Source: a virus
Virus record (IMG/VR): IMGVR_UViG_3300045996_002966
Coordinates: 1 to 64,000 of that record
Direction: 5' to 3' (one strand)
DNA: 64,000 nt
How positions within the stretch are numbered: the first letter of the stretch is position 1; the number at the start of each line of letters is the position of its first letter. The notes below the pieces were generated by a model that worked only from the letters and a program-made list of their open reading frames with translations, made no database searches and was not told the DNA's origin. Shown piece by piece: positions 12 to 53,026 of this stretch. Position numbers and translations under genes: made by a program.

Positions 12-179
12 ATGGACACTGACCTAGATCGTAGTGACGCGGCCGACGCGCGCCGCTTCCGTTGGTTGTTGAACGGCAACGGGTACTTCCTCGAGGAGGC
101 GATGCTCTGCGGTCATGAACAGTTTGACGAAAGCGACGAAGCCCGGCGCGCGATCGACAAGGCGATGAAGGATGACTAA
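12..179 (+). CDS. Small hypothetical protein (55 aa) upstream of helicase
   Basis: The reading frame runs from ATG at 12 to TAA at 177-179 and overlaps the helicase start at 172, so the two are probably translationally coupled. The product is small, acidic and without membrane segments (MDTDLDRSDAADARRFRWLL...). I recognise no family. The window edge leaves only 11 bases upstream, but they include the purine-rich AGGGGTGGGG, a plausible ribosome binding site. Function unknown. Confidence 0.6.
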   Translation: MDTDLDRSDAADARRFRWLLNGNGYFLEEAMLCGHEQFDESDEARRAIDKAMKDD

Positions 180-1662
180 CGACCTCTACGCCATTCAGCC
201 GCAGAAGTGGGTGCCGCACGCCTATCAGAAGAAGGCCCTCAAGTTCCTGATTGAGCACGCGGCCGCCGGCCTACTGCTCGACCCTGGGCTAGGCAAAACC
301 TCGATCACCTACGGTGCAATTCGCTTCCTGAAGAAGCGCAGTCTCATCGAGAAGGTGCTCATCATCGCACCGCTGCGCGTCTGCAGCCTCGTGTGGCCGG
401 CGGAGCGCGAGAAGTGGATCGACTTTCACGACCTGCGCGTGGTGGTGCTCCACGGGCCGAAGAAGGATCAGCTGCTGCGCGAGGACGCGGACATCTATAT
501 CATCAATCCCGAGGGTCTGGATTGGCTTCTACAGACCGAGAAGGTGAAGCTACCCTCCGGCAAGACACGGGTCACCGTGAACCTGCGCCGCTTCAAGGCC
601 CTAGGCTTCGATGCCCTGGTCGTCGACGAGCTATCGAAGTTCAAGCACACGAACACGAACCGCTACAAGGCTCTCAAGCAGGTGGTGCCGACCTTCGCCC
701 ACCGCTGGGGCTTGACCGGCAGCCCGGCCTCGAATGGGCTCCTAGATCTATTCGGCCAATGCTACATCCTCGACGAGGGCCGCACCCTGGGCCCTTACAT
801 CACGAAGTACCGTCAGACCTACTTTAACCCCGACTGGAGCGGGTTCGGCTGGACGTTGAAGGAGGGCGCCGACCAAGCGATCTATGAGCGCATCGCGCCT
901 CTCATGCTGCGCATGGCGGGCGAGGACTACCTCGAGCTGCCGCAGTTGGTCGAGCACCGCATTGAGGTCCAGCTCCCGCCCGAGGCGATGGTAGTCTACG
1001 ATCAGCTGGAGAACGACCTCATCGCGCGAATCAACAAGGACGCGGTCGTGGTTGCGGCGAACGCCGGTGTGGCGACGGGTAAGTGCCGCCAGGTTGCCAA
1101 CGGCGGTATCTACCTCGAGCCCGCCCTTGAGCCGGTTCTCGTCAAGGCCAAGAAGAAGCGCGAATGGGCGACGATTCACACGGAGAAGATTGAGGCTCTA
1201 GCCGACCTCGTGGAGGAGCTGCAGGGCGAACCACTTCTGGTAGCCTACGACTTCGAACACGACCTCGACCGCATCCGTGATCGGTTCGGGAAGGACGTGC
1301 CGTTCATCGGCGGCGGGGTATCGCTGAAGCGAAGCAAGGAGCTGGAGCGCCTATGGAACAACGGGAAGCTGCCGGTGCTATTTGCCCACCCGCAGGCGGT
1401 AGCTCACGGGCTTAACCTGCAGGAGCGAGGCCATCACGTCTGCTGGCATAGCCTGCCCTGGGATTTTGAGCTGTTCGATCAGTTCAACCGTCGGGTGCTG
1501 AGGCAGGGTAACCCGAGCGCGAAGGTCTTTGTGCACTTCCTGATCGCGAAGGGTACCATCGATGAGACGATCTACTACGTGCTAAAGGCGAAGGACAAGG
1601 GGCAGCAGGCCCTCTTCACCGCGCTGAAGGATCTAGCGAAGCGCAGGAGGAAGGCGGCATGA
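172..1662 (+). CDS. SNF2/DEAD-type superfamily 2 helicase
   Basis: This 496-residue protein is an ATP-dependent DNA translocase/helicase of superfamily 2. Visible motifs are Walker A DPGLGKT (residues 37-43), a DExx box VVDELSK (about 150-156), motif III LTGSPASNG (181-189), and C-terminal motifs V/VI around HGLNLQ and FDQFNRRVLRQG (about residues 415-452). The DEL(S)K variant of the DExx box is usual for phage SNF2-like helicases, which act in replication, recombination or fork remodelling. It overlaps its neighbours on both sides (8 and 4 bases), so it is part of a translationally coupled group. Length and motif order are complete. Its DNA substrate cannot be judged from sequence. Confidence 0.93.
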   Translation: MTNDLYAIQPQKWVPHAYQKKALKFLIEHAAAGLLLDPGLGKTSITYGAIRFLKKRSLIEKVLIIAPLRVCSLVWPAEREKWIDFHDLRVVVLHGPKKDQLLREDADIYIINPEGLDWLLQTEKVKLPSGKTRVTVNLRRFKALGFDALVVDELSKFKHTNTNRYKALKQVVPTFAHRWGLTGSPASNGLLDLFGQCYILDEGRTLGPYITKYRQTYFNPDWSGFGWTLKEGADQAIYERIAPLMLRMAGEDYLELPQLVEHRIEVQLPPEAMVVYDQLENDLIARINKDAVVVAANAGVATGKCRQVANGGIYLEPALEPVLVKAKKKREWATIHTEKIEALADLVEELQGEPLLVAYDFEHDLDRIRDRFGKDVPFIGGGVSLKRSKELERLWNNGKLPVLFAHPQAVAHGLNLQERGHHVCWHSLPWDFELFDQFNRRVLRQGNPSAKVFVHFLIAKGTIDETIYYVLKAKDKGQQALFTALKDLAKRRRKAA

Positions 1663-1950: not shown

Positions 1951-2322
1951 ATGAAAGCAGCTCAAAAAACCTCCGGCGTCAACAAAGTGGTTTCGCATCG
2001 CCGGACGGCTACCCAGATGCTCAAGAAGGTCGGCATCGCCCAAGCCCGCTACAGCGACTTCATCTCCTGCGGCGAAGACGGCAAGTTCTTTGTGAACATC
2101 GAAGACGCCGTGCGCTCCCTGCAGAAACCTGCCAAGGTCGTCAAGGCTAAAGCGGTGAAGGTCGAGGGCGAGCAGAAGATCACCCTTGCCAACACGATCC
2201 GCTCCATGGTTCTCTCGGGCCAAACCAACGAGGAGATCCGCGAGAGCCTCCAGCTCCCCGACAACAAGCGCCACTACCCCGCTTGGTATCGTGCCGAGAT
2301 GGCTCGCAAAGCTGCGCACTAA
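1951..2322 (+). CDS. WYR-domain protein A (123 aa), putative nucleic-acid binding
   Basis: A small basic protein with two recognisable parts. Residues about 15-50 (RRTATQMLKKVG...) resemble the N-terminus of the protein encoded at 2710. The C-terminus (about 80-120) carries the KRHYPAWYRAEM signature shared with the proteins at 2710 and 3712 and, in degenerate form, with the end of the cytosine methyltransferase at 5224. A Lys/Val/Ala-rich linker joins them. The C-terminal unit looks like a compact helical domain of about 50 residues; DNA or RNA binding is inferred from the basic character, not shown. It is preceded by promoter P1 and followed by a strong hairpin, so it may be monocistronic and well expressed. 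Confidence 0.7.
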   Translation: MKAAQKTSGVNKVVSHRRTATQMLKKVGIAQARYSDFISCGEDGKFFVNIEDAVRSLQKPAKVVKAKAVKVEGEQKITLANTIRSMVLSGQTNEEIRESLQLPDNKRHYPAWYRAEMARKAAH

Positions 2323-2335
2323 TCTCGGGATCCCC

Positions 2336-2360
2336 GGAGGGCTTCGGGCCCTCCTTCTTC
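2336..2360 (+). terminator. Rho-independent terminator after WYR protein A
   Basis: A perfect 7-bp stem GGAGGGC/GCCCTCC (2336-2342 with 2348-2354), a TTCGG loop, and a pyrimidine tail TTCTTCCCC. The U-tract is modest, so termination may be partial. Confidence 0.65.
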
Positions 2361-2384
2361 CCCTAACCCTTTGGAAGCAAAGCC

Positions 2385-2594
2385 ATGAAAGATTTTACAC
2401 CCGCGCAGGCGGCCCGTTGGGTCGCTCAGCAGTTGGCCTCTACTACCCGTCGGGGTCCGGCAGCTGTGCGGGAGCGGATTAAGTCCGAGGAATCGTTTGT
2501 CAAGAGGTATGCCGAGCTGGGCTTACCCGACGATCTACCCATTTCCAGCGGTGCTCACAAAACCCTGATCGAGGAACTGAAGAAGCTGCAGTAA
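2385..2594 (+). CDS. Hypothetical protein (69 aa)
   Basis: ATG at 2385 follows a weakly matching leader. The product (MKDFTPAQAARWVAQQL...) is soluble, helix-rich and balanced in charge. It has no family match that I recognise. It lies between two hairpins (2336 and 2606) within the WYR-protein cluster, so it can be transcribed by read-through from P1. Confidence 0.6.
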   Translation: MKDFTPAQAARWVAQQLASTTRRGPAAVRERIKSEESFVKRYAELGLPDDLPISSGAHKTLIEELKKLQ

Positions 2595-2605
2595 TACTTT
2601 TGTAC

Positions 2606-2628
2606 TAGGGGGTTCCTTCGGCCTCCTA
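2606..2628 (+). terminator. Hairpin with CCTTCGG loop after 2594
   Basis: The stem TAGGGGG/CCTCCTA has seven pairs, one of them G-U, around the loop TTCCTTCGG. No T-tract follows (AAAATAG), so it may be an RNA 3'-end stabiliser or weak terminator rather than a classical one. Confidence 0.4.
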
Positions 2629-2637
2629 AAATAGTAG

Positions 2638-2666
2638 TTTACAAATGGGGAAATCCACCCTACTAT
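2638..2666 (+). promoter_or_regulatory. Promoter P2 (TTTACA-17-TACTAT)
   Basis: -35 TTTACA at 2638-2643, a 17-base spacer, and -10 TACTAT at 2661-2666. The TTGACA-like upstream box of the other promoters is missing; the hairpin at 2606 sits there instead. Just downstream GGGCTT pairs with AAGGCCC (2667-2691) to give a 5'-terminal hairpin. It drives the gene at 2710. Confidence 0.7.
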
Positions 2667-2709
2667 GGGCTTCCCCAAACCCCAAGGCCCAAAGTAAGAG
2701 AGGAATGAA

Positions 2710-3333
2710 ATGGAAATAAGCACGAAGATTTTCGCACGGCGCGATTCCGCCACCGCCCTTTTGCGCAAGCTTGGCGTTGACTCGTCGGAGTACGACAAGT
2801 ACATCGTCCGGATGACGACGGGCGAGTATCAACTCTCACTTCCGATCAAGGAAGAACCAGCCAACCCCGATCCGACTATCGCCGACGAGCAGGCAATCGG
2901 GGATCAGAAGGCCAACGCCGCCCTCAGCGATACTCCGCCCCCTCAAGAGGAGGAGGGTGAGGCCGCCTCCGATACGGAAGTCGGCGCCGAGGAGGGGGAG
3001 GGCGGCGCTGAGGAGGAAAAAGAAAAGCCGGCGTCACGGGGCAGAGGTCGGGCTAAGAAGCCTGCCAAAACTCCCAAGGCAAAGAAGGCGAAGCTGGCAC
3101 CGAAGGCGAAGCCCATCAAGCCTGCCGCAAAGATCCCATCGGGGCCGGGGCGGCTGAAAAACTCCGGCGATCGGAAGCCTTCGCTCGCAGCTCGTGCGCG
3201 TGAGCTGATCCTCGCCGGGAAGGACAACGATGCCGTCTTTGTGGTCCTGCAAAGGGAATTTGGCATTTCCGAGCAGAAGAAGCACTACCCCTCCTGGTAC
3301 CGCTCGCAGCTGAAGCGACAAGGGTTACTGTGA
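2710..3333 (+). CDS. WYR-domain protein B (207 aa) with acidic and Lys/Ala-rich linker
   Basis: Three parts are visible. The N-terminal unit (RRDSATALLRKLGVDSSEYD, about residues 10-30) is shared with protein A. The central low-complexity linker first runs acidic (EEEGEAASDTEVGAEEGEG) and then strongly basic, with KKPAKTPKAKKAKLAPKAK-type sequence like eukaryotic histone H1 tails or bacterial H1-like proteins. The C-terminal WYR domain (KKHYPSWYRSQLKR) ends the protein. The composition suggests a nucleic-acid-associated protein whose domains are tethered flexibly. It follows promoter P2, and its stop overlaps the GTG of the next gene. Confidence 0.7.
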   Translation: MEISTKIFARRDSATALLRKLGVDSSEYDKYIVRMTTGEYQLSLPIKEEPANPDPTIADEQAIGDQKANAALSDTPPPQEEEGEAASDTEVGAEEGEGGAEEEKEKPASRGRGRAKKPAKTPKAKKAKLAPKAKPIKPAAKIPSGPGRLKNSGDRKPSLAARARELILAGKDNDAVFVVLQREFGISEQKKHYPSWYRSQLKRQGLL

Positions 3334-3464
3334 AAAGGTTCTTGCGCTGGCTGATGGAGCCCGTCAGCCTCGAGCACGTGATCGGCGGCGGGATTATAGC
3401 CGCCGGTCTCGGAACCTTTGCCGGGCTTGTGATGACGATTATCTTCGTTCTGAGGGCGCAATGA
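3330..3464 (+). CDS. Small membrane protein (44 aa), GTG start
   Basis: GTG at 3330 overlaps the preceding stop. The product MKRFLRWLMEPVSLEHVIGG continues into one hydrophobic, glycine-rich span and ends VLRAQ. One transmembrane helix with a basic N-terminus is predicted. The next gene starts inside its stop (ATGATGA), so this is a translationally coupled set. Function unknown. Confidence 0.5.
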   Translation: MKRFLRWLMEPVSLEHVIGGGIIAAGLGTFAGLVMTIIFVLRAQ

Positions 3465-3715
3465 TGAAGGACGCCGTTGAGATCGTCGATGACAGCACCG
3501 CGCTCCAGGAGCGCCACACGCTCTACGTGAACGGGAGCCCGATGGTCGCGGTAAAGGTCGAGCACGGAGAGGTCCGGCTCCAGTGGATGGTTCACGGGCC
3601 GCAGAGCTGGGAGCCCCAAGGCCGCGCGCTGGTGATAGGTCTTCTTGAGCTTTCGGTGGTCGCCGATAAACTTTACAACAACCTAACAAAATTTCCGCGG
3701 GAGCCAGCATCATGA
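3461..3715 (+). CDS. Hypothetical protein (84 aa)
   Basis: It starts at ATGATG, overlapping the previous stop, and its own stop overlaps the next gene's ATG at 3712. The soluble product contains beta-rich sequence (HTLYVNGSPMVAVKVEHGEVRLQW) followed by a helix. I recognise no family. The coupling places it in one operon with WYR proteins B and C. Confidence 0.6.
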   Translation: MMKDAVEIVDDSTALQERHTLYVNGSPMVAVKVEHGEVRLQWMVHGPQSWEPQGRALVIGLLELSVVADKLYNNLTKFPREPAS

Positions 3716-4344
3716 TTCTCCTTAAGGATATAATCAAACCCTGCGCTGATAGTCAACGTCGTACCTGCATCCAGGTCGACCGGGATAACAGTGAGGTAAA
3801 ATACATTGAATTAGATATAGACACTGGCCTGGAGGTCCGGGCCTTACCCGTTTCCAGTTTTGACCAACGATTTCAGCCGTTGGTTGACTACCCCCCTGAT
3901 CGTGCCTGTCAGCTCTACGCGGAATACTCGCGCGTGATGGGGGCTTCTCGGGATGCCCTGAACTTCCTCGGGGCGCTTGTTAAAATATCCAAAGAGGACA
4001 TCGAAATGGCAGTCAAACGTAAACCAGCGGTTAGGGACCAAGCGGCAGCAACCGCTCGGAAGTCTACCACCAAGGCAGTCGCGCCCAAGGCGAAAGCTGC
4101 GAAACCCACCAAGGCAGCGAAGGCGAAAGCCAAGCCTGTCAAGGCAGCCCCCTCCGGAGAGCGGCCGGAGACCCCAGCGGCGATGTTCCGCACGCTGATT
4201 CTTGGTGGAGAGCACACCGACGATGCGATTTTCGCGAAGGTCCAGAAGAAGTTTGGGCTCGACGACAACAAGCGGAATTACGTGTCCTGGTACCGCAACA
4301 GCCTGAAGAAGGCGGGACACAAGGTGCCTCAGCCGAAGAAGTAA
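3712..4344 (+). CDS. WYR-domain protein C (210 aa) with Lys/Ala linker
   Basis: The N-terminal 95 residues (MILLKDIIKPCADSQRRTCI...) do not resemble proteins A and B. They are followed by a Lys/Ala/Pro-rich linker (about 105-150, e.g. APKAKAAKPTKAAKAKAKP) and a C-terminal WYR domain (KRNYVSWYRNSLKKAG). The family therefore has interchangeable N-terminal parts attached to one conserved C-terminal module. A basic linker suggests nucleic-acid contact. It is coupled to the previous gene by a 4-base overlap and ends before a stable hairpin. Confidence 0.7.
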   Translation: MILLKDIIKPCADSQRRTCIQVDRDNSEVKYIELDIDTGLEVRALPVSSFDQRFQPLVDYPPDRACQLYAEYSRVMGASRDALNFLGALVKISKEDIEMAVKRKPAVRDQAAATARKSTTKAVAPKAKAAKPTKAAKAKAKPVKAAPSGERPETPAAMFRTLILGGEHTDDAIFAKVQKKFGLDDNKRNYVSWYRNSLKKAGHKVPQPKK

Positions 4345-4380
4345 GCAACTCGGCAAAGTTGTGAGACTGTTGTTCGGACC

Positions 4381-4401
4381 AGGGGCGCGCCTTCGGCCCC
4401 T
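4381..4401 (+). terminator. Hairpin AGGGGC/GCCCCT with CTTCG loop
   Basis: A 6-bp GC stem (4381-4386 with 4396-4401) around GCGCCTTCG, followed by TATCTCC. The T-tract is poor, so it is a weak terminator or 3'-end protection element closing the WYR cluster. Confidence 0.5.
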
Positions 4402-4433
4402 ATCTCCACATATAAAAGAATTAGGGAGTCACG

Positions 4434-5222
4434 ATGAAGCCCCGACGAGAACGGCAGCGGGATGACCGCGACTATGACACCAGCCAGCTCAATGAACGTT
4501 TCCATGCGGGGGTGATGGGCCGGGATTATTCTGCTCACTTCTTCCGTTGGTCCTTCGCCCGGCGTCTGATCCTTAAGGACGATGATGTGCTAGAGGTCGG
4601 CTGCGGTCAAGATAAACCTCTGTCCAAAATTCTCGTACGGGGTCCGGTTGCTCTGGTGAATACCTATACCGGCGTTGACCTTAATCCTCTGAAGCAGTCG
4701 GCGATCAAAAAGCTAACCTTCAAAGGGGAGTTCAACTTCGTAGAGCGGTACCAGGAGCTGCTCGATGAGCGTGATGGTGAGGGCTTCGATATCCTGATTC
4801 ACCTCGAGGTCATCGAGCACATGCACGTGGACCTTGGGAAGAAGATGCTCAAGGCCTGCTACCGGTGCCTGCGCCCCGGCGGAACGATGATCATGTCTAC
4901 GCCGGCCTATGACGGGAAGCGCCACGCGGCGAACCACATTCACGAGTACACCGTACCCGAGCTGCAGAAGTACGTGGAGGTAGCTGGCTTCGTGGTCGAG
5001 GATCGCTTCGGTACCTTTATGGACATCCGCCACATCGGGAAGGCCGCGCCCAGCATTCACGACGACGACACGAATGACCCGTCGGAAATCAACGAAGCTG
5101 TGACCATCGCGAATCGGTACCTGAGCAAATACTACGACACCCACGCGCTTTCGTGCTTCTTCGCGCCGCTCTACCCTGACCACGCTCGCAACAACCTTTG
5201 GCTCTGCAGGAGACCTGACTAA
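4434..5222 (+). CDS. Class I SAM-dependent methyltransferase
   Basis: This 262-residue protein has motif I LEVGCGQDKPLS (about residues 44-55), an acidic motif II in YTGVDLNPL (about 80-88), and FDILIHLEVIEHM (about 118-130), where the VIEHM box is typical of the Methyltransf_11/23 group. These are usually small-molecule, protein or glycan methyltransferases rather than DNA enzymes, and I cannot assign a substrate. Its SD (AGGGAG) is well placed. It ends one base before the start of the cytosine methyltransferase gene, so both are probably co-expressed. A role in modifying an unusual base or cell-surface molecule is possible. Confidence 0.8.
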   Translation: MKPRRERQRDDRDYDTSQLNERFHAGVMGRDYSAHFFRWSFARRLILKDDDVLEVGCGQDKPLSKILVRGPVALVNTYTGVDLNPLKQSAIKKLTFKGEFNFVERYQELLDERDGEGFDILIHLEVIEHMHVDLGKKMLKACYRCLRPGGTMIMSTPAYDGKRHAANHIHEYTVPELQKYVEVAGFVVEDRFGTFMDIRHIGKAAPSIHDDDTNDPSEINEAVTIANRYLSKYYDTHALSCFFAPLYPDHARNNLWLCRRPD

Positions 5223-5223
5223 A

Positions 5224-6570
5224 ATGGCTCGACAACTCACCGCCCTAGGAGGCGCGATCTTCGCTGGCCTGTTCACGGTCGGGATCAAGGAAGCTGGCTA
5301 TAGGGTGCTCGGGCACCTGGAGTTCGGCGACTACGGCGTCGCAACGGCGCGCAAGAACTTCCCCGACCTTGACATCCGCGTAGGTACGCACAACTGGAAT
5401 CCCGAACGGTTCACCGGCAAGGTGGATTTCATGTACACCAACCCGCCGTGCGCTGCCTGGTCGACCCTGGGCCACCCCACGCGGAAGTGGCATGAGCAGA
5501 CCGAGCGACTCTCCTGCGTGCAAGACCTGGTGCAGGCGGGTCTCATCGTGCAGCCGAAGGCTTGGTGCTGGGAGAGCGTGACGGGGGCGTGGGGGAAGGG
5601 TCGCGAATTCGTGCTCGAGCAGGCCCGGATCTGGAATCAGCACGGGTACCACGTGACGGTGCTGCTCCAAAACAACATGTACCTCGGCTGCCCGCAGTTC
5701 CGCAAGCGAATGTTCCTCATCGCTCACAAGCACCCGATTGTCTGGATGCCGTTCGTAGAATCACGGACTACGGGGCAAATCCTGAAGCAGATGCCGAAGC
5801 GAGGCCTGCCGAAGCCCCCGTTGGTACCGCCACCGCTCTCGCCGAGGTTCCTGGAGCTATGGCACCGCTCGGATGGCCACGGGCGCCTGCGGCGCGCCTA
5901 TGAGCAGATGAGCGAGGAGGAGCTAGCGAAGCACCCCGGCATCATCCCGTTCGCCGTCGTGCGGCGGCTCAACCCAGACAAGCCCCCACCGGTGTTCCTG
6001 CAGAGCGCGATGCGGCTCCACCCGACGGAGCCCCGTGAGTTCACCTACCACGAGTGGCTCGAGTTCACGGGGCTGCCGCACAACTGGCAGACGGCCTGCA
6101 CCAGCTTCAACTCCTTCTCCCTGGAGCTATCCCGCGCCGTCATGCCGCCGGTCGGCCGCTGGCTCGGGGAGTCGATCGCCGCCGGTCTCAAGAAGAAGCC
6201 CCTCGACATCAACAAAGGCGTGACCACCAGGGTGGTGAATTTCATGTTCGGGCCGGAGCGGGCCAGCGAGGAGGAGCTATGGCGCACGACGGAGTTCGCC
6301 GACCTCTCGACTCCTGTTTGGAGCCCCGCGACGCCCCCGCCGGAAGCGCCCAAGCGGGTGGCAAGGATAGGAGCCCCGCCCCGCGCGCCAAGCCCAGGGC
6401 GCCCCGGTATCGGGGCTCGAATCAGGGATCTGCTGCAAGACCCGCGAGGCTTTATCACCGAGCAGATTCTCACAACGATCCGGCAGGAGTTTCCCCAGTC
6501 CAAGGCCACCGCGGCCGACGTGTCCTGGAACCGCGGCAAACTGAAGAAGGAGCAGCAACGTGCAGCCTGA
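5224..6570 (+). CDS. DNA cytosine-C5 methyltransferase with C-terminal WYR-like domain
   Basis: A 448-residue Dcm/C5-MTase family protein. Motif I is GGAIFAGLFTVGIKEAG (about 9-25), the catalytic Pro-Cys loop is NPPCAAWSTLG (Cys76), the ENV-equivalent is CWESVTG (about 115-121), and motif VIII is CPQFRKRMFLIAH. The enzyme would transfer methyl from SAM to C5 of cytosine in a short target. The target-recognition region looks short. Beyond the MTase fold, the last 55 residues (IGARIRDLLQDP...DVSWNRGKLKKEQQ) match the WYR domain of the small proteins encoded at 1951-4344, with WYR changed to WNR. Overlap with the next gene is 11 bases. It could protect phage DNA from host restriction. Confidence 0.85.
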   Translation: MARQLTALGGAIFAGLFTVGIKEAGYRVLGHLEFGDYGVATARKNFPDLDIRVGTHNWNPERFTGKVDFMYTNPPCAAWSTLGHPTRKWHEQTERLSCVQDLVQAGLIVQPKAWCWESVTGAWGKGREFVLEQARIWNQHGYHVTVLLQNNMYLGCPQFRKRMFLIAHKHPIVWMPFVESRTTGQILKQMPKRGLPKPPLVPPPLSPRFLELWHRSDGHGRLRRAYEQMSEEELAKHPGIIPFAVVRRLNPDKPPPVFLQSAMRLHPTEPREFTYHEWLEFTGLPHNWQTACTSFNSFSLELSRAVMPPVGRWLGESIAAGLKKKPLDINKGVTTRVVNFMFGPERASEEELWRTTEFADLSTPVWSPATPPPEAPKRVARIGAPPRAPSPGRPGIGARIRDLLQDPRGFITEQILTTIRQEFPQSKATAADVSWNRGKLKKEQQRAA

Positions 6571-7084
6571 AGAGTTGAAAGAAAACCTCTCGATTCTAAT
6601 CGACTTCATCCACACCGCGCCGGGACGTCTACCCTTCCGGGTCCAGACGGCCATTGCGTTGCTAGAGCAGGCCATGCCACCGACGATCGAGGAACCGCCC
6701 GACCTCATCGGCGACGTGCGGGCCTTCGGTGAGAAGTTCGGCCTGCCGCTCTCCGACACGCCGCACCTGCTCAAGCCCGAAGATTGGGCTTACCGCGTTC
6801 ATTTCCTCCACGAGGAGCTGATGGAAACGGAGGAGGCCTATGATGTAGACGACCTGGTGGGCGTGGCCGACGGTCTCATCGACCTCATCTACGTGGCCAT
6901 TGGCACGCTCCAGTTGATGGGCGTCCCGGTCGCCGAGGGTTGGCGCGAGGTGCAGCGAGCTAACATGACCAAGGAGCGGGTGGCCAAGGCCGAGGATTCC
7001 AAGCGCGGTCACGCCTGGGATATCAAGAAGCCCGAGGGGTGGGAGCCGCCCAACTGGGAGCGCGTGCTCGGGAGACCTACATGA
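6560..7084 (+). CDS. MazG-like nucleotide pyrophosphohydrolase
   Basis: It starts at GTG 6560, behind GAAGGAG, inside the end of the methyltransferase gene. The 174-residue product has the all-alpha NTP-PPase signature EELMETEEAYDVDDLVGVAD followed by GLIDLIYVAIGTLQLMGV (about residues 91-128), with the E..E...D metal ligands in place. The family hydrolyses (d)NTPs to monophosphates and PPi; T4 gp56 dCTPase/dUTPase belongs to the same broad fold. Placed directly before a dNMP kinase, TS homologue and dCMP deaminase, a dCTPase or dUTPase role is the natural inference. Exact substrate not provable from sequence. Confidence 0.8.
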   Translation: MQPEELKENLSILIDFIHTAPGRLPFRVQTAIALLEQAMPPTIEEPPDLIGDVRAFGEKFGLPLSDTPHLLKPEDWAYRVHFLHEELMETEEAYDVDDLVGVADGLIDLIYVAIGTLQLMGVPVAEGWREVQRANMTKERVAKAEDSKRGHAWDIKKPEGWEPPNWERVLGRPT

Positions 7085-8007
7085 GATCCGCTCGCCTGAC
7101 CATCTTCGAAGGGCCGGACGGCGCGGGCAAGACCACCCTGGCCCAGGCCTACGCCAAGGAGACCAACGCGCGGTATCTGCACTTCGATGCGCTGCGCGGT
7201 ATCAAGACCGGCGCCGGCCTGGCTCGGCACTACGCCGAGGCGATCATGCCCGCGGTGCTAGGCTACCAGGACATCGTCATGGATCGCTGCTGGCTCTCGG
7301 AGGAGCCCTACGCCGAGGTCTACCACCACGAGCAGGGCAGGCTCGGCCGAGCCCATACCCGAATGCTCGAGCGCCTGGCCCTGCGCTGCGGCGCGGTCGT
7401 GGTTCTTTGCGCTCCGCCCCTGGAGGTGGTACGCGAGAACTACCTGTCGCGCCAGGGTGAGGAGATGCTCGAGAGCGTGGCCCAGCTGGAGCAGGTCTAC
7501 GATCGCTACAAGCGTCACCTGCTTACGCACCTGCCCTGCGTGGCCTACGACTACACCGGGAAGACCGGCAACGCGACGGTGCCGCCCTACTACCTCGAGG
7601 AGTTCCGCGGTCAGCGCCACTCGCTGGCGGTGGGGAGCACGGCGGGTAACTGGGATGCGCGCGTAGTCCTCGTGGGGCAAGACTTCGCTCGGCACAAAGA
7701 CCTGGATTCATACTACCAGTGGCCCTTCGCGTCGTTCGCCGGCGCTGGCTGCTCGCGCTTCCTCACCGATCACCTGGAGGAGTGGGGTATTCTCGAGAGC
7801 GAATTGCTTTGGGTCAACGCCGACATGGTCCTCGAGGCGATCCCGTTCGGCGAGCGCAAGGTGATAGCTCTGGGCGAGCTGGCGTCGATGGCTCTCAACG
7901 TTCTCGACGTGAGGCATACGCTTATCTCTCACCCGCAGTATCATAAACGATTCAAGGCTGGCGAGCCTTATCTGCTCGGCCCTCAGCTCGTGGAGATGTT
8001 GAAATGA
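7081..8007 (+). CDS. dNMP (thymidylate-type) kinase fused to a uracil-DNA-glycosylase-like domain
   Basis: ATG 7081 overlaps the previous stop. Residues 1-185 form a P-loop nucleoside monophosphate kinase: Walker A EGPDGAGKTT (10-19), a DR motif (68-69, MDRCWLSEEPYAE), and a lid-like Arg-rich region. Residues 192-308 are a second domain, RVVLVGQDFARHK..WPFASFAGAGCSRFL...KVIALGELAS...ISHPQYHKRF, whose pattern (VLVGx, PF..FAGxG..L, ALGxxA, HPxYxxRF) resembles UDG superfamily family 4/5 proteins. The glycosylase match is my inference; the canonical acidic/Asn residue of motif A appears replaced (VGQDF). Single-domain dTMP kinases are about 210 residues, so the extension is real. The gene is coupled to the TS homologue by a 4-base overlap. 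Confidence 0.75.
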   Translation: MRSARLTIFEGPDGAGKTTLAQAYAKETNARYLHFDALRGIKTGAGLARHYAEAIMPAVLGYQDIVMDRCWLSEEPYAEVYHHEQGRLGRAHTRMLERLALRCGAVVVLCAPPLEVVRENYLSRQGEEMLESVAQLEQVYDRYKRHLLTHLPCVAYDYTGKTGNATVPPYYLEEFRGQRHSLAVGSTAGNWDARVVLVGQDFARHKDLDSYYQWPFASFAGAGCSRFLTDHLEEWGILESELLWVNADMVLEAIPFGERKVIALGELASMALNVLDVRHTLISHPQYHKRFKAGEPYLLGPQLVEMLK

Positions 8008-8864
8008 CACCTGACCTCACGACCGTCTGGTTGAACACGTTGCATATGGTAGTCTCCGAAGGCCACCAGGTCTCGCCGCGGGGAAAGCTGACCCTGGAGA
8101 TTCCGCAGCACACCAGCGTCGTTAACATGCGGCGCCCGGTGCTCACCGCCCCAGCTCGGAAGCTCTCCTACAAATTCATGGCGGCCGAGGCTTATTGGAT
8201 CCTCTCGGGCGATAACTCCGTGAAGGGAATCGCGCCCTACAACGCGAACATCGCCCAGTTCTCCGACGACGGGGAGACCTTCTTCGGTGCCTATGGGCCG
8301 AAGATCCTGGCTCAGCTCGACTACGTGGTAGCGAAGCTGCTCGAGGATCCGACCAGTCGTCAAGCGGGGCTGACCCTCTGGCGGGAGAACCCACCGACGA
8401 CGAAGGACGTACCCTGCACGGTCGCCATGTTCTTCGCGATTCGCGGGTCGCGGTTGAACCTCCACGTCTTCATGCGGTCGAACGACGTGTGGCTCGGCAT
8501 GCCCTACGACGTCTTCAACTTTTCCATGCTGGCCCATCTGGTTGCCGCCAGGATCAACCGCGAGCGGCAGAACGACCAGATCATGGACGGGCAAGTTCCC
8601 ACGCCAATCAGCGTCGTGCCGGGTAACCTCTACCTGACCGCGGCGAGCTGCCACCTCTACCGTGAGCACTGGGACGCCGCGGCCGACGTGTTTAGCTCGT
8701 CCCTGGGCCTGCAGCCGGCCACGCCGGAGGGACTGTTCCTGAATGAATGGCTGCTGATGGATTGGCTAAAGAAGCTACGCGACGCCGGACCGGAATCCAC
8801 GATGCGCTGGTGGACGCAACCAGCGATCGAGACCACTACCCCAACCCTGGAGGAGAAGTTATGA
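8004..8864 (+). CDS. Thymidylate synthase homologue, probable dCMP (or dUMP) hydroxymethylase
   Basis: The 286-residue protein has the TS fold motifs: the folate/nucleotide region AEAYWILSGD (61-70), the catalytic Cys138 in DVPCT, and RSNDVWLGMPYDVF (158-171). In thymidylate synthases the last motif is LGLPFNIA, with an Asn that selects dUMP. Here Asp169 replaces Asn, the substitution known from T4 gp42 dCMP hydroxymethylase and sufficient in TS mutants to accept dCMP. The Trp-rich IWDEW segment of TS is also missing (NIAQFSDDG). I therefore infer a hydroxymethylase acting on dCMP, with dUMP as the alternative. It overlaps its neighbours by 4 bases on each side. Confidence 0.8.
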   Translation: MTPDLTTVWLNTLHMVVSEGHQVSPRGKLTLEIPQHTSVVNMRRPVLTAPARKLSYKFMAAEAYWILSGDNSVKGIAPYNANIAQFSDDGETFFGAYGPKILAQLDYVVAKLLEDPTSRQAGLTLWRENPPTTKDVPCTVAMFFAIRGSRLNLHVFMRSNDVWLGMPYDVFNFSMLAHLVAARINRERQNDQIMDGQVPTPISVVPGNLYLTAASCHLYREHWDAAADVFSSSLGLQPATPEGLFLNEWLLMDWLKKLRDAGPESTMRWWTQPAIETTTPTLEEKL

Positions 8865-9424
8865 AACTCGAGGAGCACACCCTCGGTGCCGCGATGGCGG
8901 CGATCGAGACCCTGCAAGACCTCGGATTTACCTTCGACAACTCGATCAACCGGCGTTGGAGCCCGCCGAAGAACCTACCGCCTCACATGAGACCAATCCC
9001 GCTGGAGGAGCAGTTTCGCCAGGTGATGATGGCGCTGGGCTTCCCTTCGGCTCAGCACCTCTCGAGTGGCGACGTGCTGACGGTCGCGGTGGCTGGAATG
9101 AAGGTCTTCCAAGAGGCTGACCCTCGCAACCCGCGCACCGGACCATTCGCCAAGGATCTTGAGCGCCGTTCGGCGGACCAAGTAGCTTTGAACGCGGCGA
9201 CCCCGCTCAATACGCTGCCGGCCGCGGAGAAGGAAGCGCGAAAGCACGACCAGACCAAGGTCGGGCTCGAGGCGGAGAAGGAGCTGGTTCGGCAGGTGAT
9301 CCGCGAGGAGCTGAAGATTTCATTGGACCGCCGGCTTAACTACGATTCATGGGATTGGGTTGTTTCGCTTTACCTGGTAAATGACGAGGCCTTTGATTCT
9401 GACGCGGTGAGGGAAGTGCGATGA
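8861..9424 (+). CDS. Hypothetical protein in nucleotide operon (187 aa)
   Basis: ATG 8861 overlaps the previous stop and the gene's stop overlaps the deaminase start, so it is translated as part of the nucleotide operon. The product is soluble and helical. It contains a conserved-looking early segment (MKLEEHTLGAAMAAIETLQD) and a charged C-terminal helix (EAEKELVRQVIREEL). I recognise no family. Its position between a hydroxymethylase-like enzyme and dCMP deaminase suggests a partner or accessory role, but nothing in the sequence proves it. Confidence 0.6.
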   Translation: MKLEEHTLGAAMAAIETLQDLGFTFDNSINRRWSPPKNLPPHMRPIPLEEQFRQVMMALGFPSAQHLSSGDVLTVAVAGMKVFQEADPRNPRTGPFAKDLERRSADQVALNAATPLNTLPAAEKEARKHDQTKVGLEAEKELVRQVIREELKISLDRRLNYDSWDWVVSLYLVNDEAFDSDAVREVR

Positions 9425-51955: not shown

Positions 51956-53026
51956 CTATTTGTTAAACAGCGTTTCGTCGCGTCGTTTCAGGGCCTCGAG
52001 GTCAAGCACCTCGCCCTGCTTATTCACAAACTTGTCGAGAGGAAGGTGGTGCTCCCGAAAGAGCTGCCCGCGCTTCGCACCAAGCACCTCGTCCTGGACC
52101 GCGGCCGGTTGATCCCGCAGCCAGCCCCCGAAGCTGGTGGCCGCTGGCACCTGACCATCCATCGAGGCGCGCATACCGGCGTCGACCTCCTCGAGGTTCA
52201 CACCCAGCTCGCGCCAGGAGGCGGTGATCGGCGCCGCTAGACTGCGGCAGTTCCAGTGGCGCGGGGGCTGCGGACCTTTACCGACCGGGAAGGTCTTGCC
52301 GTCCAGGCTGCCGCAGGTGATCGAGGTTCGCGAGTCCAGGGTGGCGCGGAACACCCAGCGCGGCACCAGGTCTTTGTTCTCCTCATAGATTTTCTGCTTG
52401 GCGTAATTCTGCGTGTGGTTCACCGCGGTTCGCACCAGGGCTGCCAGCTGGTGGCGCGGTCGCTCGAGGAGGCCATCGGCGTAGCCCTGGGCGCGTGTGC
52501 CTCGTAAGGTGCGGGTGATCTCCGCCTCGGTACGACCCTCGATGATCCCCATGCGAATGGTGTCGCGGATCAGCTTCGCGCGCCCTGCTTCTTGGTCCTC
52601 CAGGGCCTCGGAGAGCAGTACACCCTGGAAGGGTCGGGCCATCGCGGCGGCGAATACCTGATCGGCAACCACGCGATTAACCCCGAGCTGGGTCACGATG
52701 GGCTCCGGCACCTCGGTCTCGAGCAGGGTCGCCTGGTACTCCAGCTCGTGGTCGAGGAAATCATGCAGCTCAACGCTCAGCGCGCGGCTCAGCCGATCGT
52801 AGGAGGTCGCGTTAAGGGCGTTTGCGTCGACGAGAAGGGCCTCCAGGCGCTCAATTCGCAGGTCCGAGGCTGTACCCTCGATCGCCGCGCTCAAACGCGC
52901 TAGGAGGTCTGTATCGACCTCGTTCAACAGGCCTACCATGCGCTGGACGGCGCCGTTCGCGAAGCGCTGCAGGCTTACCGCGTGCCGAACCTCCGCGTTG
53001 AAGAGCCTTTCATTGACGGTAGCCAC
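51956..53026 (-). CDS. MuF-like head morphogenesis protein (356 aa)
   Basis: The phage Mu F-like C-terminal signature is visible at RHWNCRSLAAPI and TLDSRTSITCGSLDGKTFPV (about residues 225-265), typical of proteins near the portal. I chose GTG 53026; TTG 53035 is possible. No SD precedes either, and the upstream region is occupied by promoter P11 of an inserted plus-strand cassette, so the real start or coupling signal may have been disrupted. It is normally a portal neighbour. Confidence 0.75.
   Translation of the reverse strand: MATVNERLFNAEVRHAVSLQRFANGAVQRMVGLLNEVDTDLLARLSAAIEGTASDLRIERLEALLVDANALNATSYDRLSRALSVELHDFLDHELEYQATLLETEVPEPIVTQLGVNRVVADQVFAAAMARPFQGVLLSEALEDQEAGRAKLIRDTIRMGIIEGRTEAEITRTLRGTRAQGYADGLLERPRHQLAALVRTAVNHTQNYAKQKIYEENKDLVPRWVFRATLDSRTSITCGSLDGKTFPVGKGPQPPRHWNCRSLAAPITASWRELGVNLEEVDAGMRASMDGQVPAATSFGGWLRDQPAAVQDEVLGAKRGQLFREHHLPLDKFVNKQGEVLDLEALKRRDETLFNK

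What the first reader, a model, noticed from the sequence alone, without database searches (positions are those of the whole stretch)
1951..6570. New family of 'WYR' C-terminal domains, also fused to a DNA methyltransferase
Four products within 4.6 kb end in the same about 50-residue module: RHYPAWYRAEM, KHYPSWYRSQL and RNYVSWYRNSL, plus DVSWNRGKL in the cytosine methyltransferase. Each is preceded by a helix (xxLILxGxxxDxI). Their N-terminal parts differ, so the module is mobile. Association with a DNA methyltransferase and basic linkers suggests it binds nucleic acid and targets different activities to it. It may be a phage DNA-targeting domain with several client proteins.
Basis: seen in the sequence. 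Interest (0 to 1): 0.7.

Follow-up and report, generated by a model that had tools for sequence, protein, structure and literature searches.

The report
Unnamed phage helix-turn-helix-like shared domain
Four neighbouring proteins of this bacterial virus, one of them a DNA-methylating enzyme, end in the same small three-helix domain; related phages carry it in up to six places per genome, including a head protein fused to an ADP-ribosylating enzyme, so it is probably an uncharacterised tether that holds different phage proteins on DNA.

Summary
Four products (1951-2322, 2710-3333, 3712-4344, 5224-6570) end in one homologous ~50-residue module, and no other copy lies in the 72-kb record. The methyltransferase copy cannot be linked from the three sister copies alone (E 1.6, below a shuffle). 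It can be linked through 98 relatives that exclude methyltransferase-type copies (E 5e-10; best of 1000 shuffles 0.39). One correction: the first two proteins share their N-terminal domain, so there are three architectures, not four.

The module has no Pfam or NCBIfam entry; in PHROGs it is scattered over at least nine uncharacterised families. It is almost confined to one set of siphophages (Pamexvirus/Xp12, AXL3, RDJL, Achromobacter 83-24 types), up to six copies per genome. Other clients are MuF minor head proteins with two to three modules and a C-terminal Alt/VIP2-like ADP-ribosyltransferase, plus short proteins with lysine-rich tails. In one relative the P3-type protein carries a methyltransferase-type module, and syntenic methyltransferases exist without it, so it is mobile.

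AlphaFold gives a confident three-helix helix-turn-helix-like fold without a wing; helix 3 is basic and nearly free of acidic residues. Most likely it tethers clients to phage DNA. Binding is inferred, not shown.

The parts
172..1662 (+). SNF2/DEAD-like helicase, upstream anchor of the conserved gene order
   Evidence: PF00176 E 5e-21, phrog_62 DNA helicase E 1e-136; helicase upstream of module genes in relatives
1951..2322 (+). P1, 123 aa: N-domain shared with P2, short linker, C-terminal module
   Evidence: N-domain E 1e-13 to the P2-type family with modules masked
2167..2319 (+). module copy 1 (KRHYPAWYRAEM); lacks about four residues of helix 2
2710..3333 (+). P2, 207 aa: N-domain (about residues 3-48), long acidic then K/A/P-rich basic linker, C-terminal module
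3166..3327 (+). module copy 2 (KKHYPSWYRSQL)
3712..4344 (+). P3, 210 aa: folded N-domain (residues 1-105), disordered K/A/P-rich linker (about 106-150), C-terminal module
   Evidence: homologues with the same layout in about 20 viral contigs
4156..4329 (+). module copy 3 (KRNYVSWYRNSL); predicted helices at P3 residues 155-165, 170-181, 190-200
   Evidence: AlphaFold pLDDT 93-98 over residues 151-200
4434..5222 (+). class I SAM methyltransferase without module, conserved neighbour of P3
   Evidence: PF13489 E 1e-11; same position in AXL_3 and PW916
5224..6570 (+). C5-cytosine DNA methyltransferase with C-terminal module; PCxxxS (PPCAAWS), ESV and QxRxR motifs present
   Evidence: PF00145 E 4e-16, residues 14-318; motifs
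6394..6561 (+). module copy 4 (ATAADVSWNRGKLKK)
   Evidence: E 5e-10 with a profile lacking methyltransferase-type copies
6560..7084 (+). MazG-like nucleotide pyrophosphohydrolase, conserved downstream gene
   Evidence: phrog_671 E 4e-26
8004..8864 (+). thymidylate synthase / pyrimidine hydroxymethylase superfamily enzyme, conserved in module-bearing phages
   Evidence: phrog_5131 E 4e-41; 57-61% identical to AXL_3, PW916 and MW202621 enzymes

Best explanation
A phage-specific three-helix, helix-turn-helix-type domain of about 45-50 residues serves as an interchangeable DNA tether. Its third helix (consensus [I/V]xWYRNxL[K/R]K) is predicted to lie on DNA, helped in several clients by a disordered Lys/Ala/Pro-rich linker or tail. 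It is attached to proteins that must work on phage DNA: here two paralogous early proteins (P1, P2), P3 with a separate N-domain, and a C5-cytosine methyltransferase. Related phages also carry it in a MuF minor head protein that ends in an Alt/VIP2-like ADP-ribosyltransferase. Shown: homology, mobility, phage-wide distribution, gene neighbourhood, and the presence of the AXL1 head protein in virions (published). Predicted: the fold. Inferred: DNA binding, low sequence specificity, and that the module raises the methyltransferase's residence on DNA.
For: Homology of all four copies. Fold: three helices, pLDDT 93-98 over the module. Structural matches that cover the module are all weak (Z 3.3-4.3) but nearly all come from DNA-binding proteins or transcription complexes: Nur and PerR, TnsB, the ISCth4 transposase, linker histone H1 in two chromatosome structures, Rns. 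Weak Mrr N-terminal domain matches for three members (best E 0.003). Helix 3 is basic and almost free of Asp/Glu (R/K 99%, 83% and 68% at three positions; acidic residues at most 3% at nearly all positions); 82 of 103 modules are net positive. H1-like K/A/P linkers in P2 and P3 and K/A-rich tails after the module in RDJL-type proteins. Clients include a C5-methyltransferase with intact motifs and MuF proteins; the SPP1 MuF protein gp7 is called DNA-binding in the title of a paper cited in PMC5576092. The genes lie between helicase and nucleotide-modification genes in relatives. AXL1 gp16, a MuF/ADP-ribosyltransferase protein, is found in virions by mass spectrometry (PMC9206674).
Against: No direct binding evidence. 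Fold matches are below Z 5, and three-helix bundles match many things; RecX, a protein-binding three-helix repeat, also appears. No wing strands are predicted. The P1 linker is not unusually basic. The charge of the module itself is modest (mean +2.4) and negative in 10 of 103.
Confidence: 0.56

Rival explanations
1. The module is a protein-docking domain. All clients bind one common phage or host partner, such as the helicase, the polymerase, the host RNA polymerase or the portal, and so gather at one place.
For: Several clients per genome (up to six copies). RecX-type three-helix repeats, which bind protein, are among the fold matches. Clients with quite different tasks share it.
Against: Acid-free basic third helix and basic linkers. 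Nearly all module-covering fold matches are DNA-binding proteins or transcription complexes. A virion head protein and a methyltransferase have DNA, rather than an obvious protein, in common.
Confidence: 0.25
2. The module is a capsid-targeting tag that brings proteins into the head so that they are injected with the genome.
For: It is present in MuF head proteins with an injected-type ADP-ribosyltransferase, and AXL1 gp16 is in the virion (PMC9206674).
Against: MuF already brings a protein to the procapsid through the portal (SPP1 gp7, PMC6316719), so no tag is needed there. This phage's own MuF protein lacks the module. Most clients lie in the early replication cluster.
Confidence: 0.08
3. 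The module binds RNA (host or phage transcripts, tRNA) rather than DNA.
For: Basic three-helix domains and lysine-rich tails also bind RNA (general knowledge); the P3 N-domain resembles SH3-like/KOW ribosomal-protein folds, weakly.
Against: Fusion to a DNA C5-methyltransferase and to a portal-associated head protein; no RNA-specific client was found.
Confidence: 0.07

Closest known systems
PHROG families 17205, 34102, 38698, 17767, 16873, 35736, 21513, 37268 (unknown function) and 21789 (virion structural)
   Same: They contain this module: phrog_17205 matches 15 of 16 module sequences.
   Different: They are whole-protein clusters. The shared module is not defined, named or given a function, and the proteins of copies 1-3 here score only E 0.008 or worse against them.
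AXL1 gp16-type MuF-VIP2 minor head proteins (PMC9206674) and polyvalent proteins (PMC5512222)
   Same: MuF head domain plus Alt/VIP2 ADP-ribosyltransferase. Our L082-type proteins have this layout.
   Different: A text search of those papers for DNA-binding, winged or helix-turn-helix domains gave no description of a repeated module between the two domains. The window's proteins are not polyvalent head proteins.
Linker histone globular domain with lysine/alanine-rich tail
   Same: Three-helix core with a long loop before helix 3 and K/A/P-rich basic segments; weak fold match to H1.0 (Z 3.5, rmsd 3.4 over 58 residues).
   Different: No sequence match to the linker histone family in Pfam, no wing strands predicted, and a phage origin. 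A resemblance only.
Mrr N-terminal domain (PF14338)
   Same: Weak matches that include helix 3, in three members.
   Different: Far below the family's cut-off (15.9 versus 29.5 bits for the P3 module).
Mobile DNA-binding domains of viruses such as KilA-N/Bro-N (from general knowledge)
   Same: Works like them: a small DNA-binding domain joined to varied partners in one virus.
   Different: No match to any such Pfam family.

Membership tests
   Methyltransferase copy E 5e-10 with all methyltransferase-type copies left out of the profile; copies 1-3 were part of that profile, but BLAST links P1, P2 and P3 to relatives outside the window at E 1e-17 or better
   L005 P3-type protein (N-domain E 1e-25) carries a module that falls with methyltransferase-type copies (group 91/88, parent branch 99/97). 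Methyltransferases in L006 and L022 lack the module
Helix-turn-helix fold | Three-helix core with a third helix able to act as recognition helix | tested here: met
   AlphaFold helices 155-165, 170-181, 190-200, pLDDT 93-98; basic, acid-free helix 3. Prediction only
Winged helix | Two-strand wing after helix 3 | tested here: not met
   No strand in residues 201-210 of the predicted model
Linker histone (Pfam linker histone family) | Sequence match to the family model | tested here: not met
   Not among the matches of 16 modules at E up to 1
Linker histone (Pfam linker histone family) | Same fold | tested here: inconclusive
   Z 3.5 to 7xvl_o and 3.3 to 4qlc_U, tied with other HTH folds
Mrr_N (PF14338) | Score over the curated cut-off | tested here: not met
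   15.9 versus 29.5 bits for the P3 module; best E 0.003 among 16 members
C5-cytosine DNA methyltransferase | PF00145 over cut-off with PCxxxS, motif VI Glu and QxRxR | tested here: met
   59.7 bits versus 22; PPCAAWS, ESV, QFRKR
DNA-binding domain | Measured binding to DNA | not testable with these tools
   Needs a gel shift or similar

The most novel reading that the evidence does not exclude
The module is a reader of base-modified phage DNA: it binds the phage's own cytosine-modified genome in preference to host DNA and so sends replication proteins, a methyltransferase and an injected ADP-ribosyltransferase to phage DNA. In support, 25 of 26 module-bearing genomes encode a thymidylate-synthase-family enzyme; module-bearing AXL1 and AXL3 resist most restriction enzymes with G/C in their sites; and their relative Xp12 has 5-methylcytosine in place of all cytosine (PMC9206674). 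This may equally reflect shared ancestry.
Probability: 0.1. Interest if true: 0.8.

Novelty: new member of a known kind. Interest (0 to 1): 0.52.

Why it matters
The domain unites many 'hypothetical proteins' of a widespread siphophage group under one fold and one testable role. It links early replication-cluster proteins, a DNA methyltransferase and a virion-borne ADP-ribosyltransferase of the same phage group. If it binds DNA, it explains how a phage can send several activities to its own genome with one small exchangeable part. If it prefers modified DNA, it would be a self/non-self label reader.

Tried and rejected
Linking the methyltransferase copy from copies 1-3 alone: failed. Pfam and NCBIfam identification of the module: none over cut-off in Pfam; the NCBIfam hits are few, weak and unrelated to each other, most likely from lysine/alanine-rich stretches. 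Solved-structure search by sequence gave no convincing relative; the profile's top hit, 8vd6 'CAP REPEAT' (E 1.5e-7), has no single stretch that passes and was judged repeat bias. Bacterial genomes: two pattern scans over 84,980 species gave one confirmed locus, on a 34-kb contig of a Lentisphaera metagenome bin, probably a phage; plasmids none. The Erwinia phage Hallingskeid match (ADP-ribosylglycohydrolase) was read and is a chance hit to a NYVEWYQNG string inside the enzyme. The absence of a strong fold match is not taken as evidence of a new fold.

Full report
Observation. A profile of 16 modules finds exactly four copies in the whole 71,959-base viral record, all in this cluster. I tested the weakest link, the methyltransferase copy. 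A profile of copies 1-3 gives it E 1.6, and one of 1000 shuffles of its tail does better. A profile of 98 relatives that excludes every methyltransferase-type copy gives E 5e-10, with the next window ORF at 0.46 and the best shuffle at 0.39. The claim is therefore true, though it could not be established from the four copies.

Correction. P1 (1951-2322) and P2 (2710-3333) also share their N-terminal domain (RRDSATxxLRKLGxxxxxY..FI). With modules masked, a profile of relatives finds both at E 1e-13 and 6e-14 and no other window ORF. Relatives usually have one P2-type gene followed by one P3-type gene, so P1/P2 is most simply a local duplication (inference). There are three architectures, not four. 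Basic K/A/P-rich linkers are outliers in P2 and P3 only.

Distribution. Scans of viral contigs with three subfamily alignments and of sequenced phages gave 130 profile matches in the fetched loci, about 105 of them distinct. Isolates include Stenotrophomonas AXL_1 and AXL_3, Pseudoxanthomonas PW916, Xanthomonas DoCa phages, Pseudomonas AAT-1, PaMx28 and PaMx74, Achromobacter 83-24 and Roseobacter RDJL phages. Up to six copies occur per genome. Bacterial genomes yielded one locus on a short contig and plasmids none. The gene order polymerase - helicase - module protein(s) - (methyltransferase) - MazG - thymidylate synthase - dCMP deaminase recurs in most of the isolates and, from the helicase on, in the window.

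Clients. C5-methyltransferase with C-terminal module: window, L005, L020, L091, L092. MuF minor head protein, two to three modules, then ADP-ribosyltransferase: L082, L088 and others, with an Alt-like PHROG match. MuF plus one module: L039. Short proteins with lysine/alanine-rich tails after the module: AXL_1 gp68, PA_LZ02, RDJL3. AXL1 gp16, the MuF/ADP-ribosyltransferase protein, has been found in virions by mass spectrometry and its MuF and VIP2 domains were described; my text search of that paper found no mention of a DNA-binding or helix-turn-helix part (PMC9206674).

Mobility. The L005 P3-type protein has the P3 N-domain (E 1e-25) but its module groups with the methyltransferase copies. 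The enclosing branch is supported at 99/97 and the methyltransferase-type group itself at 91/88, on few columns. At the same locus, before MazG, L006 and L022 have the methyltransferase without a module. The module therefore moves or is lost independently of its partner.

Fold. AlphaFold on P3 with 57 aligned sequences gives pTM 0.57 and mean pLDDT 86.5: a folded N-domain (residues 1-105), a low-confidence linker, and a module of three helices at pLDDT 93-98, with an eight-residue loop before helix 3 and no wing. Low-scoring matches that cover the module come almost entirely from DNA-binding helix-turn-helix proteins, including linker histone in chromatosomes; RecX is the clear exception. All Z values are under 5, so this is suggestive only. 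Conservation fits a DNA-facing third helix: Arg/Lys at 99%, 83% and 68% of three positions and almost no acidic residues.

Mechanism. Best supported: a DNA tether shared by several phage proteins. Shown: homology, mobility, distribution, gene setting. Predicted: fold. Inferred: DNA binding and the benefit to the methyltransferase, which retains PCxxxS, motif VI Glu and QxRxR. The main rival is protein docking to a common partner. A capsid tag is unlikely because this phage's own MuF protein has no module and MuF reaches the procapsid through the portal (PMC6316719).

Novelty. There is no Pfam or NCBIfam model that identifies it. The domain lies within at least nine PHROG families, eight of unknown function and one labelled virion structural. 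It is a new, unnamed member of a known kind, small mobile helix-turn-helix-type domains of viruses. A link to base-modified DNA is possible: 25 of 26 module genomes have a thymidylate-synthase-family gene, AXL1 and AXL3 DNA resists most restriction enzymes with G/C in their sites, and Xp12 is a relative. Common ancestry explains this equally well.

Limits. Homologous rows in the alignment guide the model, so the methyltransferase copy's fold rests on homology. No binding data exist here.

Noticed in passing
window 3712-4026: The N-domain of P3 (strands plus helices, pLDDT above 90) matches SH3-like/KOW folds weakly (L14e-type ribosomal proteins, CarD, TRCF; Z 3.3-4.1); it has no named family.
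   Followed up: partly
window 52241-52570 (minus strand): This phage's own MuF head protein (360-residue frame) carries no module, unlike the 1.1-1.3-thousand-residue MuF proteins of Pamexvirus-type relatives.
   Followed up: yes
L020 4387-5220: The P2-type protein appears to have two copies of the short N-domain (RRxxATxxLRKLG type) before its module.
   Followed up: no
L016 10930-11289; L105 2630-3187 and 3310-4197: Further small proteins carry the module, some in a divergent subtype that matches only profile positions about 18-57; in AXL1 they lie next to a HIRAN-domain gene.
   Followed up: no
L031 1426-3294: Two P3-type proteins in tandem, another local expansion of module genes.
   Followed up: no
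L108: Only confirmed match in the bacterial genome collection, on a 34-kb contig binned as Lentisphaera; probably a phage contig.
   Followed up: no
window 8747-9424: 225-residue ORF between thymidylate synthase and dCMP deaminase with no PHROG match.
   Followed up: no
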